Source: Barnesiella propionica (GTDB taxonomy: Bacteria; Bacteroidota; Bacteroidia; Bacteroidales; Barnesiellaceae). From it: 64,000 nt of DNA. The notes below the pieces were generated by a model. It did not search any database. It was not told where the DNA came from and worked only from the letters and a program-made list of their open reading frames with translations. Below are positions 39,036-45,065 of the stretch, piece after piece (position 1 is the first letter of the stretch; each line of letters opens with the position of its first letter). The position numbers were made by a program, and so were the translations under genes. The stretch covers positions 124,001 to 188,000 of the forward strand of contig NZ_JAOQJK010000002.1 of the NCBI RefSeq assembly GCF_025567045.1. The letters are read 5' to 3'.

Positions 39036-39078
39036 TTTATAAGACAAAGGCGCTTTAAAAGCGCCTTTGTCTTATAAA
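39036..39078 (-). terminator. Terminator of the aromatic amino acid operon
   Basis: Perfect 21-bp inverted repeat centred on one base, directly overlapping the end of tyrA's downstream side. Both flanks are AT-rich; the T-tract is short. Confidence 0.8.
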
Positions 39079-40940: not shown

Positions 40941-42146
40941 TTATTTATTTTCTTTAAAATTTAATGTCTTTATACGTTGAAGTGCTTTTTCCAGGACATC
41001 CTCAGTTGCACATAAAGAGATTCTTATATAGCGGTCTCCTTGGCTGCCGAAAATAAAACCGGGAGTGATAAATACATTAGCATCGTATAAAACCCGGTCT
41101 GCCAATGCTTCCCCGCTATTTGCGGTATCGGGAACTTTGCCCCACAGGAAAAGACCTTTTTGTCCAGAATCGAATGTGCATCCGAGAGCATTCATGATTT
41201 TTTCGGCAACCAAACGTCGTGACGCATATTGGCGGTTGAGGGAATCATACCAGTCTTTACCGCAATGTAAAGCTGTTACGGCTGCCGATTGTAGCGGACG
41301 GAACATTCCTGAATCGATATTACTTTTTACCCGTAATATCCATTCGATGAATTGGGAGTTCGAAGCCAGCATACCGATGCGCCATCCGCTCATATTATGG
41401 GATTTGCTCAATGAATTCATCTCTATGCATATTTCTTTGGCTCCTGCAATTTCGAGGATGCTCAACGGATTATCGTTTAAGATAAAACTGTACGGATTGT
41501 CATTCACAATTATAATTTTGTGGCGTTTCCCGAATTCTACCAGACGGGTGAATAATTCGATAGTCGCACAGGTTCCGGTAGGCATATGAGGATAATTTAC
41601 CCACATAAGTTTTATTTTTTCGAGAGGCATTTTTTCAAGCGCTTCGAAATCAGGCATCCATCCGTTTTCTTCCTGAAGGTCATATGTGTAAATATCCGCT
41701 TCGGCGAGACGGCTTACCGAACAGTAAGTAGGATAGCCTGGATTAGGAACGAGAACTCCGTCCCCCGGGTTAAGAAATGCCAGAGAAATATGCAAGATAC
41801 CTTCTTTCGAGCCTATCAAAGGTTGAATTTCTGTTTTAGGGTTTAATGTTACTCTATACCATTTTTTATACCATTCTGCAAATGCCTGCCTCAATTCGGG
41901 AATACCGACATAAGGCTGGTATACATGAGTGTCGTCCCGTCGGCTTTCCCGGCATAAGGTTTCTATGGTGTCGGCGTGAGGCGGCCGGTCCGGTCCGCCG
42001 ATGCCCAGGCTTATTACCTGTTTTCCGTTGGCATTCATTTCAGCTATTTCTCTTAATTTTTTTGAGAAATAATATTCGCTGATGTTGTTTACCCGGTTTG
42101 CCGGGGTTATTTCAGATAGTTTGGGTGCATTCTGCATATTCTCCAA
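40941..42146 (-). CDS. Class I/II aminotransferase, probably aromatic
   Basis: PLP enzyme of 401 residues with the fold-type I signature: NPGYPTYCSVSRLAEA, NYPHMPTG, NDNPYSFIL, and the PLP lysine in MNSLSKSHNMSGWR. Placed between pheA and the DAHP synthase/chorismate mutase gene, it most likely transaminates phenylpyruvate and 4-hydroxyphenylpyruvate, the final step to Phe and Tyr. The sequence also resembles LL-diaminopimelate-type aminotransferases, so substrate is an inference from context. Its start overlaps the pheA end by 35 bases; an alternative ATG is at 42137. Confidence 0.9.
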   Translation of the reverse strand: MENMQNAPKLSEITPANRVNNISEYYFSKKLREIAEMNANGKQVISLGIGGPDRPPHADTIETLCRESRRDDTHVYQPYVGIPELRQAFAEWYKKWYRVTLNPKTEIQPLIGSKEGILHISLAFLNPGDGVLVPNPGYPTYCSVSRLAEADIYTYDLQEENGWMPDFEALEKMPLEKIKLMWVNYPHMPTGTCATIELFTRLVEFGKRHKIIIVNDNPYSFILNDNPLSILEIAGAKEICIEMNSLSKSHNMSGWRIGMLASNSQFIEWILRVKSNIDSGMFRPLQSAAVTALHCGKDWYDSLNRQYASRRLVAEKIMNALGCTFDSGQKGLFLWGKVPDTANSGEALADRVLYDANVFITPGFIFGSQGDRYIRISLCATEDVLEKALQRIKTLNFKENK

Positions 42147-42960
42147 GTATTTTAAAGTCTTTAGTTAATGGTCTTATTGCGTCGAGAGATTGTTTGTACC
42201 GGGTAAAGTTGTCAAAGGTTACATCTACGTAGAAGCGGTATTCCCATTCTCTTCCGATGATAGGTAATGACTGTATCTTAGATAGATTGATATCATAAAA
42301 AGATAAGATAGTAAGAACTTTTGACAGGCTGCCGTGTGTATGGGGAAGACTGAAAACCAGAGATGCTTTGTTTATAGTATGTCTGGCCGTGTATTCTTCT
42401 CCGGCAAAACGGTCTGCCAGAATCAGAAAACGGGTAAAATTCCGTTTATTGGTTTCGATCCCTCTTGCGAGGATGTTTAGACCGTAAATTTGTGCTGCGA
42501 GCTCTCCGCATATGGCTGCATGTCCTTTTAGTGAATTTTCCGATATTTCTTTTGCACTTCCTGCTGTGTCGTCCTTTTCTACGATCTTCATGTGCGGATT
42601 GCTTTTGAGGAATTCTTCACATTGCATTAATGCGATAGGGTGGGAATTCACTTCTGTGACAGTTTGCAGGGTATCGTCCGGAAGAGCAGCCAGTACATGG
42701 GAAATGCGTAATTTATATTCACCTATGATGTTTAATTCACTTTTACGTAATAACTCGTGGTTTTGTAATAAACTACCCGCAATCGTATTTTCGATTGCCA
42801 TGATTCCCAATAAAGTGCAGTCATCGTTCATTTTTGCAAATAACTCCGGAAAACTCATGCACGGAACGGCTTCTATTTCTTCCTGATAAAAATAAGAACG
42901 TGCGGCAGCTTCATGATAACAGCCTGTTACTCCTTGTATAGCAATTCTTTTCTTTTCCAT
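42112..42960 (-). CDS. pheA: Prephenate dehydratase
   Basis: Converts prephenate to phenylpyruvate, the Phe branch. Catalytic domain at about 1-180 with IAIQGVTGCYHEAA, MAIENTIAGSL and NFTRFLIL (the Thr-Arg-Phe catalytic motif). A C-terminal ACT domain at about 195-275 (ASLVFSLPHTHGSLSKVLTIL, then EYRFYVDV) gives Phe feedback. I start at 42960; the upstream in-frame ATG lies inside the attenuator terminator stem. No fused chorismate mutase here, since the operon encodes it on the DAHP synthase. It is the first gene after a tandem attenuator. Confidence 0.95.
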   Translation of the reverse strand: MEKKRIAIQGVTGCYHEAAARSYFYQEEIEAVPCMSFPELFAKMNDDCTLLGIMAIENTIAGSLLQNHELLRKSELNIIGEYKLRISHVLAALPDDTLQTVTEVNSHPIALMQCEEFLKSNPHMKIVEKDDTAGSAKEISENSLKGHAAICGELAAQIYGLNILARGIETNKRNFTRFLILADRFAGEEYTARHTINKASLVFSLPHTHGSLSKVLTILSFYDINLSKIQSLPIIGREWEYRFYVDVTFDNFTRYKQSLDAIRPLTKDFKILGEYAECTQTI

Positions 42961-42971
42961 TTTATAGTCAT

Positions 42972-43008
42972 AAAATAAAAATCCCATCTTTTGGCAAAGG
43001 TGGGATTT
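42972..43008 (-). terminator. Attenuator 2 terminator before pheA
   Basis: Stem of 12 pairs with one C-A mismatch (43008-42996 with 42991-42979), loop GCCA, followed by TTTTATTTTA. Its 5' arm includes CCCACCTT (43004-42997), exactly complementary to AAGGTGGG at 43054-43047 inside leader peptide 2, so an alternative antiterminator can form. It ends about 12 bases before the pheA start. Confidence 0.85.
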
Positions 43009-43014
43009 GTCTTT

Positions 43015-43113
43015 TTATTTGAAATTCGTATTTATAACAGCAACAACCCACCTTACATTTTTAGTAAAGAAAAAATAAAGGCCGTAAAAGAAAAATGTAT
43101 GATTGACGTTCAT
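43015..43113 (-). CDS. Phe-rich leader peptide 2 (32 residues)
   Basis: Frame beginning MNVNHTFFFYGLYFFFTKN, then VRWVVAVINTNFK. It has seven Phe (two runs of three) and two Tyr, the pattern of Phe attenuator leader peptides such as the one before E. coli pheA. It lies between two terminators, upstream of pheA and on the same strand. The AAGGTGGG antiterminator arm is codons 20-22, just after the second Phe run, so a ribosome stalled early on Phe codons would leave it free. Its stop is only 6 bases before the terminator stem. Confidence 0.8.
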   Translation of the reverse strand: MNVNHTFFFYGLYFFFTKNVRWVVAVINTNFK

Positions 43114-43124
43114 TGTCGTATCGT

Positions 43125-43163
43125 ATTAAAATAAAAAATCCCGTTTGTTCGAAACGGGATTTT
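43125..43163 (-). terminator. Attenuator 1 terminator
   Basis: Perfect 12-bp stem (43163-43152 with 43146-43135), five-base loop, followed by TTTATTTTAAT. The 5' arm with one more base (43164-43152) pairs with 43214-43202 over 13 positions including one G-T, forming a longer antiterminator that fully occupies the arm. Confidence 0.88.
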
Positions 43164-43201
43164 AATATATTATTTTGTTTTTATCGTTTTTGTGTTTTAC
43201 A

Positions 43202-43214
43202 TAAAACCCCGTTT
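43202..43214 (-). promoter_or_regulatory. Antiterminator arm of attenuator 1
   Basis: AAACGGGGTTTTA on the minus strand. It is complementary to the 5' arm of terminator 1 and begins immediately after the stop codon of leader peptide 1, so a ribosome sitting on that stop would cover it and favour termination. Confidence 0.75.
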
Positions 43215-43274
43215 TTATTTTTTTCCGAAATAAAAATAAAAATAAAAGTAATATGCAAAATTCAGATTTTTCAT
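43215..43274 (-). CDS. Tyr/Phe-rich leader peptide 1 (19 residues)
   Basis: Frame MKNLNFAYYFYFYFYFGKK: five Tyr and five Phe, nine of them in the stretch of residues 8-16. The start is about 22 bases after the expected transcription start from the promoter at 43302-43332, and the stop abuts the antiterminator arm. A further tiny frame (MTIYKQ) just upstream overlaps its ATG by the bases ATGA. The composition cannot easily arise by chance in front of a Phe/Tyr operon. Confidence 0.82.
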   Translation of the reverse strand: MKNLNFAYYFYFYFYFGKK

Positions 43275-43301
43275 TGTTTGTAAATTGTCATTTTTCTGTG
43301 A

Positions 43302-43332
43302 CAAAAGTAATGATTAGTTTCTTCTTTCCAAA
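43302..43332 (-). promoter_or_regulatory. Promoter of the pheA operon leader
   Basis: TTTG at 43332-43329, exactly 19 bases, TACTTTTG at 43309-43302: a full match to the Bacteroidota consensus TTTG-N19-TAnnTTTG. Transcription would start near 43296 and give a leader of about 335 bases before pheA. Confidence 0.85.
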
Positions 43333-43603: not shown

Positions 43604-44062
43604 ATGAAAGCTGTAGAGCAGATACTGGTAAATGGTATAGAAAACGCATTTAAAGAGGCGATAGCAAAAGCTGATGAGAAGAATTTGGCATTATCCGATA
43701 TGTACATACGGATAAAAAATGAGGAAGCTTCTTTTACTATATATGATGATACCGATAATGTATTGGTCCAGGTGAATGTTGATGAACTCAGTGAATGGAA
43801 AGATCCTTCGGACGAGGGTTATGAAATGGCTTTAACCGGATTCCTGAAACAAATATTGAATACTCCCTCATTGAAATCTGAATTTGAAAAGCTCAATATA
43901 TTAACTCCTTTTTCGGTTGTGCTGGTCGATGATGATTTTGAGGCAATTGCCGAGTTATTGACTATAGATGATGAAAATATTTATCTTGAAGATAATTTCT
44001 GGAACAAAATGGATAAGGAACTGGATGAATTTTTTGAAAATCTGATGAAAGATGTAAAATAA
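43604..44062 (+). CDS. Uncharacterised acidic 152-residue protein
   Basis: Not recognised. Cytosolic, without signal peptide. Strongly acidic, with Asp/Glu-rich patches such as DDTDNVLVQVNVDELSEW, VLVDDDFEAIAEL and LDEFFENLMKDVK. The N-terminus (MKAVEQILVNGIENAFKEA) is helical. It is monocistronic, with an own -7 box, an exceptional Shine-Dalgarno sequence and a following hairpin, which suggests high expression. Confidence 0.8.
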   Translation: MKAVEQILVNGIENAFKEAIAKADEKNLALSDMYIRIKNEEASFTIYDDTDNVLVQVNVDELSEWKDPSDEGYEMALTGFLKQILNTPSLKSEFEKLNILTPFSVVLVDDDFEAIAELLTIDDENIYLEDNFWNKMDKELDEFFENLMKDVK

Positions 44063-44186: not shown

Positions 44187-45065
44187 ATGAAAAAAATAAT
44201 TCTATCAATTGCATTATGTCTTTATTGTATTATAACATTCGGACAAAATCTAACTCAAGAAATTGAAAAAGTGATACAAGAGAAACAGGCTTCTATAGGC
44301 GTGGCAGTCATGTATGGAGACAAAACTTTTGCTGTCGCCAATCATAAAAAATATCCAATCATGAGTGTATTCAAATTTCATATTGCAGTAACAGCATTAA
44401 AAAAGATGGAAACGGAAAATATACCTTTAGATAGTATGATATATATAGAGCCAAAACAAATCCATAAAAAAACATTTAGCCCATTAAGAGATAAATATCC
44501 AAATCAAAGAATACACCTATCATATCGAGATATGATAGAATATACAGTTGCACATAGCGATAATAACACATGTGATTTACTGATAGAATTTGTAGGAGGG
44601 ATAAAGAATGTGGATACATATATAAAATCACTTGGAATTAAAGACCTAAATCTTACGGAGACGGAACATGATATGCATGAAAACATAATGAATTGCTACA
44701 ATAATTGGAGTACGCCTTTATCTATTGCACAATTATTAAAGAAAGTCTATACAGAAAATATTTTGACTGAAGACCACTTTACTTTTTTAGAAAAAATCAT
44801 GCTTAATTGTTCTTCAGGAAAAGACAAATTAAAAGCAGGATTGCCTGCAGACATTAAGATAGCTCACAAAACAGGACATTCAGATCGCACTTCTGACGGT
44901 TTGCAAATAAGCGAGGCTGATGCCGGGGTTATTTATTTACCTAATGGAGAAAAATGTTATATTGTGGTTTTGATAAAAGATTCTCGAGAGTCGGATAAAG
45001 ACAATGCTAAAATAATGGCAGATATAGCGAATTTAACTTTTAGAATTTATAATACCGGTATTTAA
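44187..45065 (+). CDS. Class A beta-lactamase, subclass A2 type (CfxA/CblA-like)
   Basis: Periplasmic serine hydrolase expected to open beta-lactam rings. A signal peptide is at 1-19 (ending TFGQ). All class A landmarks are present: S60-V-F-K63 (SxxK), S124-D-N126, a Glu in the omega-like TETEHDMHEN segment near 158-160, and K228-T-G230. Layout resembles CfxA, CblA and CepA of Bacteroides. It is clearly more AT-rich than its neighbours and uses many AAA and ATA codons, hinting at acquisition, although no mobile element is adjacent. Which drugs it acts on cannot be read here. Confidence 0.92.
   Translation: MKKIILSIALCLYCIITFGQNLTQEIEKVIQEKQASIGVAVMYGDKTFAVANHKKYPIMSVFKFHIAVTALKKMETENIPLDSMIYIEPKQIHKKTFSPLRDKYPNQRIHLSYRDMIEYTVAHSDNNTCDLLIEFVGGIKNVDTYIKSLGIKDLNLTETEHDMHENIMNCYNNWSTPLSIAQLLKKVYTENILTEDHFTFLEKIMLNCSSGKDKLKAGLPADIKIAHKTGHSDRTSDGLQISEADAGVIYLPNGEKCYIVVLIKDSRESDKDNAKIMADIANLTFRIYNTGI

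What the first reader, a model, noticed from the sequence alone, without database searches (positions are those of the whole stretch)
42972..43332. Two complete Phe/Tyr attenuators in series before the pheA operon
Seen: consensus promoter, Tyr/Phe leader peptide (43215-43274), terminator 1, Phe leader peptide (43015-43113), terminator 2, then pheA, all on the minus strand in about 370 bases. Each terminator has a complementary antiterminator arm at or inside its leader. Known: single leader-peptide attenuators control E. coli pheA, and a Trp-codon leader motif (Bacteroid-trp) has been described in Bacteroidota. Inference: a tandem arrangement controls the whole Phe/Tyr branch, reading both tRNA-Tyr and tRNA-Phe charging, with both gates needing to open. 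I do not know of a described tandem Tyr/Phe attenuator in Bacteroidota.
Basis: partly seen in the sequence, partly recalled or inferred. Interest (0 to 1): 0.93.

Follow-up and report, generated by a model that had tools for sequence, protein, structure and literature searches.

The report
Doubled Phe/Tyr attenuator before pheA
A relative of the bacterium Barnesiella carries, one after the other in front of its phenylalanine/tyrosine-making operon, two mini-genes rich in Phe and Tyr codons, each followed by a terminator hairpin; they likely act as two brakes in series that open when these amino acids run short, and at least 22 of 145 sampled relatives show such a doubled layout.

Summary
On the minus strand one promoter is followed by leader 1, terminator 1, leader 2, terminator 2 and pheA, with an antiterminator arm for each terminator. 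It is not chance: 0 of 1740 dinucleotide shuffles of 145 pheA upstream regions gave even one such unit; of 44 window frames of about 200 aa or more only this one did. A single Phe/Tyr attenuator precedes pheA in most sampled Bacteroidales and in relatives of Flavobacterium and Mucilaginibacter, with compensatory changes in all three alternative helices. The doubled form occurs in 22 of 145 genomes by rule, plus 4 by eye, one of them weak, and is scattered on the PheA tree. Unit 2 has its own covariation, and a model of unit 1 ranks unit 2 second in the 64 kb. Likely mechanism: two classical ribosome-mediated attenuators in series. Untested: termination, amino-acid response, multiplicative action. 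Novelty: new variant of a known kind.

The parts
43302..43332 (-). promoter: TTTG (43332-43329), 19 nt, TACTTTTG (43309-43302), Bacteroidota -33/-7 type
   Evidence: TTG plus TANNTTTG within 95 nt of the first leader ATG in 85 of 120 loci, 3.1 expected from shuffles
43215..43274 (-). leader peptide 1, MKNLNFAYYFYFYFYFGKK (5 Phe, 5 Tyr)
   Evidence: similar Tyr/Phe-rich frames in relatives
43212..43236 (-). helix 1:2 of attenuator 1: 43236-43228 (last Tyr/Phe codons) with 43220-43212
   Evidence: 42 double-change cells, 0 of 500 shuffles as high (pair count reached by 19 of 500); two covarying columns are mostly the third base of Tyr codons
43202..43214 (-). antiterminator arm 1 (strand 2), 13 contiguous pairs with the 5' arm of terminator 1
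43133..43163 (-). terminator 1 (strands 3:4, hairpin 43163-43135 plus T tract)
43015..43113 (-). leader peptide 2, MNVNHTFFFYGLYFFFTKNVRWVVAVINTNFK (7 Phe, 2 Tyr)
   Evidence: alignable second leaders in 10 further loci
43051..43069 (-). helix 1:2 of attenuator 2: 43069-43064 with 43056-43051
   Evidence: same helix in relatives; the window row has a double change at one pair and lacks the two outermost pairs
43047..43054 (-). antiterminator arm 2, inside leader 2, 8 contiguous pairs with the 5' arm of terminator 2
42972..43008 (-). terminator 2 (hairpin 43008-42979 plus T tract), 11 nt before pheA
42112..42960 (-). pheA, prephenate dehydratase
   Evidence: Pfam PF00800
40941..42134 (-). class I/II aminotransferase
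   Evidence: Pfam PF00155
39865..40929 (-). DAHP synthase / chorismate mutase
   Evidence: Pfam PF00793 and PF01817
39080..39853 (-). tyrA, prephenate dehydrogenase
   Evidence: Pfam PF02153

Best explanation
The pheA operon is preceded by two Phe/Tyr-rich leader frames, each followed by its own terminator hairpin and antiterminator arm, which likely work as two classical ribosome-mediated attenuators in series. Inferred steps: RNA polymerase starts at the single promoter before leader 1. When Phe- or Tyr-tRNA is scarce, the ribosome would stall in the aromatic codon run of leader 1, keep strand 1 from pairing with strand 2, and let strand 2 pair with the 5' arm of terminator 1, so that polymerase passes. 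The same test would be repeated at leader 2 and terminator 2. When both amino acids are plentiful the ribosome would run on, cover strand 2, and the terminator would form. Because both leaders carry both codons, both gates would read the same pair of signals; full-length transcript needs both to be passed, so total read-through would be roughly the product of two pass probabilities, giving lower leak and a steeper response. Shown: anatomy, conservation, covariation, recurrence. Not shown: termination, translation of the leaders, amino-acid response, multiplicative action.
For: Anatomy at exact places. One unit or more before pheA in 119 of 145 Bacteroidales genomes by rule, and in 11 of the other 26 the unit-1 model hits next to pheA; 0 of 1740 shuffles. 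Covariation on 53 unit-1 rows: terminator helix 97.3% of cells paired and 40 double-change cells, helix 1:2 88.8% and 42, antiterminator 85.3% and 56, each of these values reached by 0 of 500 shuffles. Unit 2 on 11 doubled loci: antiterminator 91.7% paired, 3 pairs with double changes, pair count reached by 0 of 500; 1:2 plus terminator 95.2%, 5 pairs, 0 of 500. Model R2, built from unit-1 rows only (the window's unit 1 among them), ranks unit 2 of the window (39.8 bits, E 4e-4) second in the 64 kb after that unit 1. Ribosome-masking folds: the antiterminator pairs at 0.88-0.94 with the ribosome on the aromatic codons of unit 1 and 0.00 at its stop; 0.88-0.93 on the aromatic run of unit 2 and 0.00 while the ribosome reads the arm. 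Pathway logic: in 5 of 5 loci examined from the Caccoplasma family an R2 hit (E 2e-11 to 7e-10) lies before a separate aminotransferase-DAHP synthase operon.
Against: With no ribosome the folds still give antiterminator pairing of 0.82 and 0.91 in the window, and over the sample a stalled ribosome raises it by 0.2 or more in only 45 of 97 single units, 10 of 23 first units and 4 of 23 second units; so helix 1:2 is a weak competitor, while trp-type control predicts termination without translation. With the ribosome at the stop of leader 2, arm 2 is free again (0.90), because the stop lies 37 nt past the start of the arm; the closed state of gate 2 then rests on timing. Stall exceeds stop by 0.2 or more in 18 of 23 second units, not in 5. 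On the stricter measure of pairs with double changes, shuffles reach the unit-1 values in 1 (terminator), 19 (1:2) and 98 (antiterminator) of 500. On the 11 doubled loci alone unit 1 covaries weakly: 11 of 500 shuffles reach its pair count in the terminator-state helices and its antiterminator is within shuffles. Arm 1 can pair 7 bases with the 5' arm of terminator 2, and arm 2 seven with that of terminator 1, so the gates are not fully separate. The 9 sampled Barnesiella-family genomes have one unit each, and the five of them on the PheA tree are nearest to the window. No transcript data.
Confidence: 0.78

Rival explanations
1. Only attenuator 1 regulates; leader 2 and terminator 2 are a leftover copy or a constant brake that does not respond to amino acids.
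For: The 9 Barnesiella-family genomes have unit 1 alone. Arm 2 in the window pairs over 8 bases against 13 for arm 1, and the stop of leader 2 sits in an unusual place.
Against: Second units keep leader, arm and terminator with compensatory changes in other families, and doubled loci occur in 22 of 145 genomes by rule.
Confidence: 0.1
2. The two gates separate two signals, the first reader's view: leader 1 for Tyr and Phe, leader 2 mainly for Phe.
For: In the window the densest 12 residues hold 5 Phe and 5 Tyr in leader 1, 6 Phe and 2 Tyr in leader 2; over 27 loci the Phe share is 0.61 in leader 2 against 0.55 in leader 1, p = 0.013.
Against: All 27 second leaders also hold Tyr, some with as many Tyr as Phe or more, e.g. 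G266, G175, G318. The loci are related, so the p value is too favourable.
Confidence: 0.08
3. The elements work by another trigger (a binding protein, a T-box or another riboswitch) and the short frames are incidental.
For: Terminator-antiterminator pairs are shared by many riboswitch types (recalled); no direct evidence of translation.
Against: No Rfam family reaches its threshold in this stretch (in the window only tRNAs do) and no T-box is among the 17 matches to E = 1. The short frames are Phe/Tyr-rich in relatives inside and outside the order and precede Phe/Tyr genes; helix 1:2 covaries through the silent third base of Tyr codons.
Confidence: 0.03
4. Chance: AT-rich DNA throws up Phe-rich frames and hairpins.
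For: The region is AT-rich, and TTT/TTC/TAT/TAC codons are common in such DNA.
Against: 0 of 1740 dinucleotide shuffles and 0 of the 43 other window frames gave a unit; covariation.
Confidence: 0.01

Closest known systems
E. coli pheL-pheA attenuator (Rfam Phe_leader, RF01859); mechanism recalled
   Same: Phe-rich leader peptide, terminator and antiterminator before pheA; stalled ribosome as switch (inferred here)
   Different: Single, Proteobacteria (recalled). The two units here score 22.5 and 22.2 bits against a threshold of 55. Here the leaders hold Tyr as well, the operon is pheA-aminotransferase-DAHP synthase/chorismate mutase-tyrA, and there are two units.
Salmonella mgtCBR tandem attenuators (PMC3641672; abstract and section 11 read)
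   Same: Two short leader frames in one mRNA leader, each controlling read-through; signals add
   Different: [quoted passage not shown] Here: the same codons twice, with intrinsic-type terminators.
Bacteroid-trp motif (RF01692, Weinberg 2010, PMC2864571; passages read)
   Same: Listed there as a cis-regulatory candidate of Bacteroidetes; link to Trp genes recalled and in the finding
   Different: No match here at threshold or among matches to E = 1. The pheA motif in that paper's table is from Actinobacteria.
Flavobacterium psychrophilum 5' element upstream of pheA (PMC9723704; passages read)
   Same: Same gene and phylum; that paper sees strong clues for leader-peptide attenuation at amino-acid operons and lists pheA among elements present in other Flavobacteriaceae genera. 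A unit of the kind described here precedes pheA in locus L298, whose PheA is 95% identical to that of Flavobacterium beibuense
   Different: The passages read do not describe leader, arms or a doubled arrangement, nor Bacteroidales.
Tandem riboswitches (PMC2864571, passages: tandem arrangement associated with more-digital regulation; glycine and B. anthracis papers cited there, not read)
   Same: Two like elements in series on one gene, thought to steepen the response
   Different: Ligand-binding aptamers (recalled), not leader peptides.

Membership tests
ribosome-mediated leader-peptide attenuator (trp/phe type) | short frame rich in codons of the operon's product amino acids | tested here: met
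   both leaders; both codons in both leaders of 27 of 27 doubled loci
ribosome-mediated leader-peptide attenuator (trp/phe type) | intrinsic terminator before the first gene | tested here: met
   by sequence and folding
ribosome-mediated leader-peptide attenuator (trp/phe type) | mutually exclusive antiterminator (2:3) and protector (1:2) helices | tested here: met
   covariation in both; but 1:2 competes weakly in the folds
ribosome-mediated leader-peptide attenuator (trp/phe type) | ribosome at the stop masks strand 2 | tested here: inconclusive
   met for unit 1 (0.00 at stop), not for unit 2 of the window (0.90 at stop)
ribosome-mediated leader-peptide attenuator (trp/phe type) | response of read-through to charged tRNA | not testable with these tools
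   needs an experiment
Rfam Phe_leader RF01859 | score at or above the curated threshold | tested here: not met
   22.5 and 22.2 bits against 55
Bacteroid-trp RF01692 | score at or above the curated threshold | tested here: not met
   no match
mgtCBR-type tandem attenuators | two leader frames in series in one mRNA leader | tested here: met
   by sequence; the transcript itself is not shown
mgtCBR-type tandem attenuators | the two frames read different signals | tested here: not met
   both Phe and Tyr codons in both leaders, (codon content only)

The most novel reading that the evidence does not exclude
A same-signal double attenuator: Bacteroidales have repeatedly built two complete, covarying Phe/Tyr leader-peptide attenuators in series on one promoter, which squares the gate and turns a graded attenuator into a steep, low-leak switch. 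It would be the first leader-peptide counterpart of tandem riboswitches.
Probability: 0.55. Interest if true: 0.72.

Novelty: new variant of a known kind. Interest (0 to 1): 0.62.

Why it matters
If true, it gives amino-acid attenuation a second architecture: two like gates in series, recurring in a major order of gut bacteria in which attenuation is little studied. With single and doubled forms in related lineages (Barnesiella single, window and Coprobacter doubled), what a second attenuator buys (steepness, leak, range) becomes directly measurable. It also supplies two covariance models for an element that no Rfam 15 family reaches in this window.

Tried and rejected
Rejected: chance; a known Rfam family; separate Tyr and Phe gates; stronger or weaker terminators as the reason for doubling (median dG -15.7 in 97 single, -14.1 and -14.4 in 23 doubled loci, p 0.06 and 0.13). 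The idea that the double is peculiar to this genome fell. A second promoter between the leaders: among 23 doubled loci 4 have a -7-like match between the two start codons, all inside leader 1; the three that the script flagged as full promoters are an index fault, since the match lies too near the leader start for the -33 test.

Errors and limits: my first detectors missed bulged terminators, so undercounts doubles and also calls L086 doubled wrongly; replace it. Four doubled loci (G266, G078, G116, G353) fail the final rule and were added by eye; on a recheck arms pair over 13 (G266 unit 1), 9 (G078 unit 2), 7 and 5 (G116) bases, but the first arm of G353 has no convincing match (best run 5 bases with one G-C pair), so G353 is weak. 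They are in the 27 loci; three of them are in the tree, from which G353 was dropped for a short PheA. Of 179 genomes with PheA in the order draw, 149 were fetched: by my count 150 places were listed, and G149 was skipped because pheA lies at a contig start. 145 had 300 nt or more upstream. The tree is FastTree with many long branches; 13 changes is a minimum on that tree and 10 are forced by its well-supported branches. A4 uses 53 of the 112 rows listed; I left out the unit-2 rows, close copies and the most distant ones. The shuffle controls of the pair counts do not keep relatedness (tool's own warning). Of the 63 hit genomes of the phylum draw I looked closely at 14 loci, those of the 20 fetched that were not in the order draw. 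One off-pathway R2 hit (G266:C1:34197, E 0.002, beside what looks by eye like a methionine gamma-lyase) was taken for chance. A paper that may have predicted attenuation in Bacteroidetes (Lopatovskaya, Seliverstov and Lyubetsky 2010; title seen in a reference list) is not held, so earlier prediction of the single form cannot be excluded.

Full report
WHAT IS THERE. On the minus strand the window shows, within about 370 bases, one promoter of the Bacteroidota -33/-7 kind (TTTG, 19 nt, TACTTTTG), a 19-residue frame with 5 Phe and 5 Tyr, a hairpin followed by T, a 32-residue frame with 7 Phe and 2 Tyr, a second hairpin followed by T, and pheA 11 nt later. A stretch just 3' of the aromatic codons of each leader is complementary to the 5' arm of the following hairpin: 13 contiguous pairs for unit 1 and 8 for unit 2. 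A third helix, between the end of the aromatic codon run and the start of that arm, exists in both units. This is the 1:2, 2:3, 3:4 layout of classical attenuators. Downstream lie genes for prephenate dehydratase, an aminotransferase, DAHP synthase/chorismate mutase and prephenate dehydrogenase. Of 66 named relatives with 4.5 kb from the pheA start, 57 show all four genes in this order.

IS IT MORE THAN CHANCE. A rule (ATG frame with at least 6 Phe/Tyr in 12 residues, then a complementary arm, then a terminator folded at -7 kcal/mol or better) was applied to the pheA upstream regions of 145 genomes from an even draw of the order: 97 had one unit, 22 two, 26 none. 1740 dinucleotide shuffles of the same regions gave no unit at all, and of 44 window frames of about 200 aa or more only the pheA frame scored, with two units. 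Four more genomes have two units by eye where the rule missed a hairpin or an arm: G266, G078, G116, and, weakly, G353, whose first arm is not convincing. Of the 26 scored none, 11 have a covariance-model hit beside pheA.

CONSERVATION OF UNIT 1. On 53 aligned units (A4) the terminator helix is formed in 97.3% of cells with 40 double-change cells, helix 1:2 in 88.8% with 42, the antiterminator in 85.3% with 56; 0 of 500 shuffles reach any of these six values, and sliding the partner by 1 to 3 columns lowers pairing to 25-69%. The stricter count of pairs with a double change is reached by 1, 19 and 98 of 500 shuffles (same calls). Two of the covarying columns of helix 1:2 are the third base of Tyr codons, TAC against TAT, in 49 and 50 of 52 rows, a silent change. 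In a draw of 395 genomes of the phylum the model hits 63. Of 14 loci looked at closely, 13 showed a unit followed by a frame that reads as PheA by eye; the fourteenth, L294, gave no unit by the rule. Two of the 13 were named through their PheA: L292 is 82-90% identical to named Mucilaginibacter proteins (its exact match is labelled Inquilinus, probably a misnomer), and L298 is 95% identical to Flavobacterium beibuense. So the single form reaches beyond Bacteroidales. Where pheA is separate from the rest of the pathway, in the Caccoplasma family, the model also hits before the aminotransferase-DAHP synthase operon (5 of 5 loci examined).

CONSERVATION OF UNIT 2. Eleven loci with alignable second units (A2) come from the window, the family of G266 (G070 in it has a PheA identical over 250 residues to a protein named Coprobacter tertius), the family of G199, and G279, G206 and G078. 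Their antiterminator is 91.7% paired with 3 double-change pairs, and helix 1:2 plus terminator 95.2% with 5; 0 of 500 shuffles reach these pair counts (the number of further pair types is reached by 85 and 10 of 500). For unit 1 on the same 11 loci the signal is weaker: 11 of 500 shuffles reach its pair count in the terminator-state helices and its antiterminator is within shuffles, because these rows vary little. A model built only from unit-1 rows (the window's own unit 1 is one of them) finds unit 2 of the window as second-best hit of the 64 kb (39.8 bits, E 4e-4), and the model of unit 2 finds unit 1 at E 0.019. In the order draw the unit-2 model scored 87 bits or more in ten genomes, all doubled and all among those it was built from; the next hit scored 67.

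DISTRIBUTION. Doubled loci are scattered. On a PheA tree of 145 rows (the window and 144 genomes; 26 doubled, three of them by eye) the doubled label needs at least 13 gains or losses (24.3 in shuffles; 10 forced by well-supported branches), and the window groups with five Barnesiella-family rows that have one unit (95% local support). All 9 Barnesiella-family genomes held have a single unit. The second units of distant lineages look different in sequence, so repeated gain is likely, but loss cannot be separated from gain here.

HOW IT LIKELY WORKS. I modelled the transcript just before the 3' arm of each terminator emerges, with the ribosome blocking from 18 nt before to 11 nt after the first base of the A-site codon. 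In unit 1 the antiterminator pairs at 0.88-0.94 while the ribosome sits on aromatic codons and at 0.00 at the stop. In unit 2 it pairs at 0.88-0.93 on the aromatic run and 0.00 while the ribosome reads the arm, but 0.90 again at the stop, which lies 37 nt past the start of the arm. Over the sample, stall exceeds stop by 0.2 or more in 92 of 97 single units, 22 of 23 first units and 18 of 23 second units. Against a strict trp-type reading, pairing without any ribosome is already 0.82 and 0.91 in the window, and stall exceeds the ribosome-free state by 0.2 in only 45 of 97, 10 of 23 and 4 of 23, so helix 1:2 protects weakly in this model. The model is equilibrium folding only.

WHAT THE TWO GATES READ. 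All 27 doubled loci hold both Phe and Tyr codons in both leaders; the Phe share is 0.55 in leader 1 and 0.61 in leader 2. So the pair does not look like a Tyr gate plus a Phe gate. With one promoter and no other -7-like match between it and pheA in the window, both terminators must be passed, and read-through would multiply. That last step is inference.

WHAT IS KNOWN. The closest described tandem is the Salmonella mgtCBR leader (PMC3641672; abstract and one section read): two leader frames, different signals, no intrinsic-type terminators. F. psychrophilum has a conserved 5' element before pheA and clues of leader-peptide attenuation (PMC9723704; passages read). The B. thetaiotaomicron map mentions sORFs reminiscent of leader peptides but, in the passages read, not pheA (PMC7366714). 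Premature-terminator analysis (PMC2965389; passages) has no Bacteroid or pheA term in its text and mentions a second terminator in tandem in the rimP leader of several Gammaproteobacteria. Apart from these, the listings of nine searches showed no paper on a doubled Phe/Tyr leader, in an open-access library that lacks most subscription papers.

VERDICT. Observation confirmed, interpretation partly supported. It is a known kind of regulator, not reached by any Rfam family here, in an unusual and recurrent doubled form.

Noticed in passing
window 44187-45065 (+): Class A beta-lactamase gene next to the pheA region: above the cut-off of the general class A model, just below that of subclass A2, and best matched by but far below the cut-off of the MUN family model.
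   Followed up: partly
L217, L218, L201, L207, L209: In the Caccoplasma family the aminotransferase-DAHP synthase genes are separate from pheA, and a Phe/Tyr attenuator model hit precedes that operon; two of these five genomes (G002, G038) also have a hit beside pheA.
   Followed up: partly
L213 (G224): The two terminators in front of pheA share nearly the same stem (CCGTCCTAAT...AGGACGG), so arms could pair crosswise, perhaps a recent duplication.
   Followed up: no
window 43604-44062 (+): Divergent 152-residue protein, acidic by eye, without any NCBIfam or Pfam match.
   Followed up: no
window about 39038-39077 (-): Long hairpin just after tyrA with little T tract, possibly the end of the operon transcript (by eye).
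   Followed up: no
L095, L096, L108 and the window: Leader 2 runs 37-38 nt past the start of its arm and ends close to terminator 2 in these four loci; what the long tail does is unexplained.
   Followed up: no
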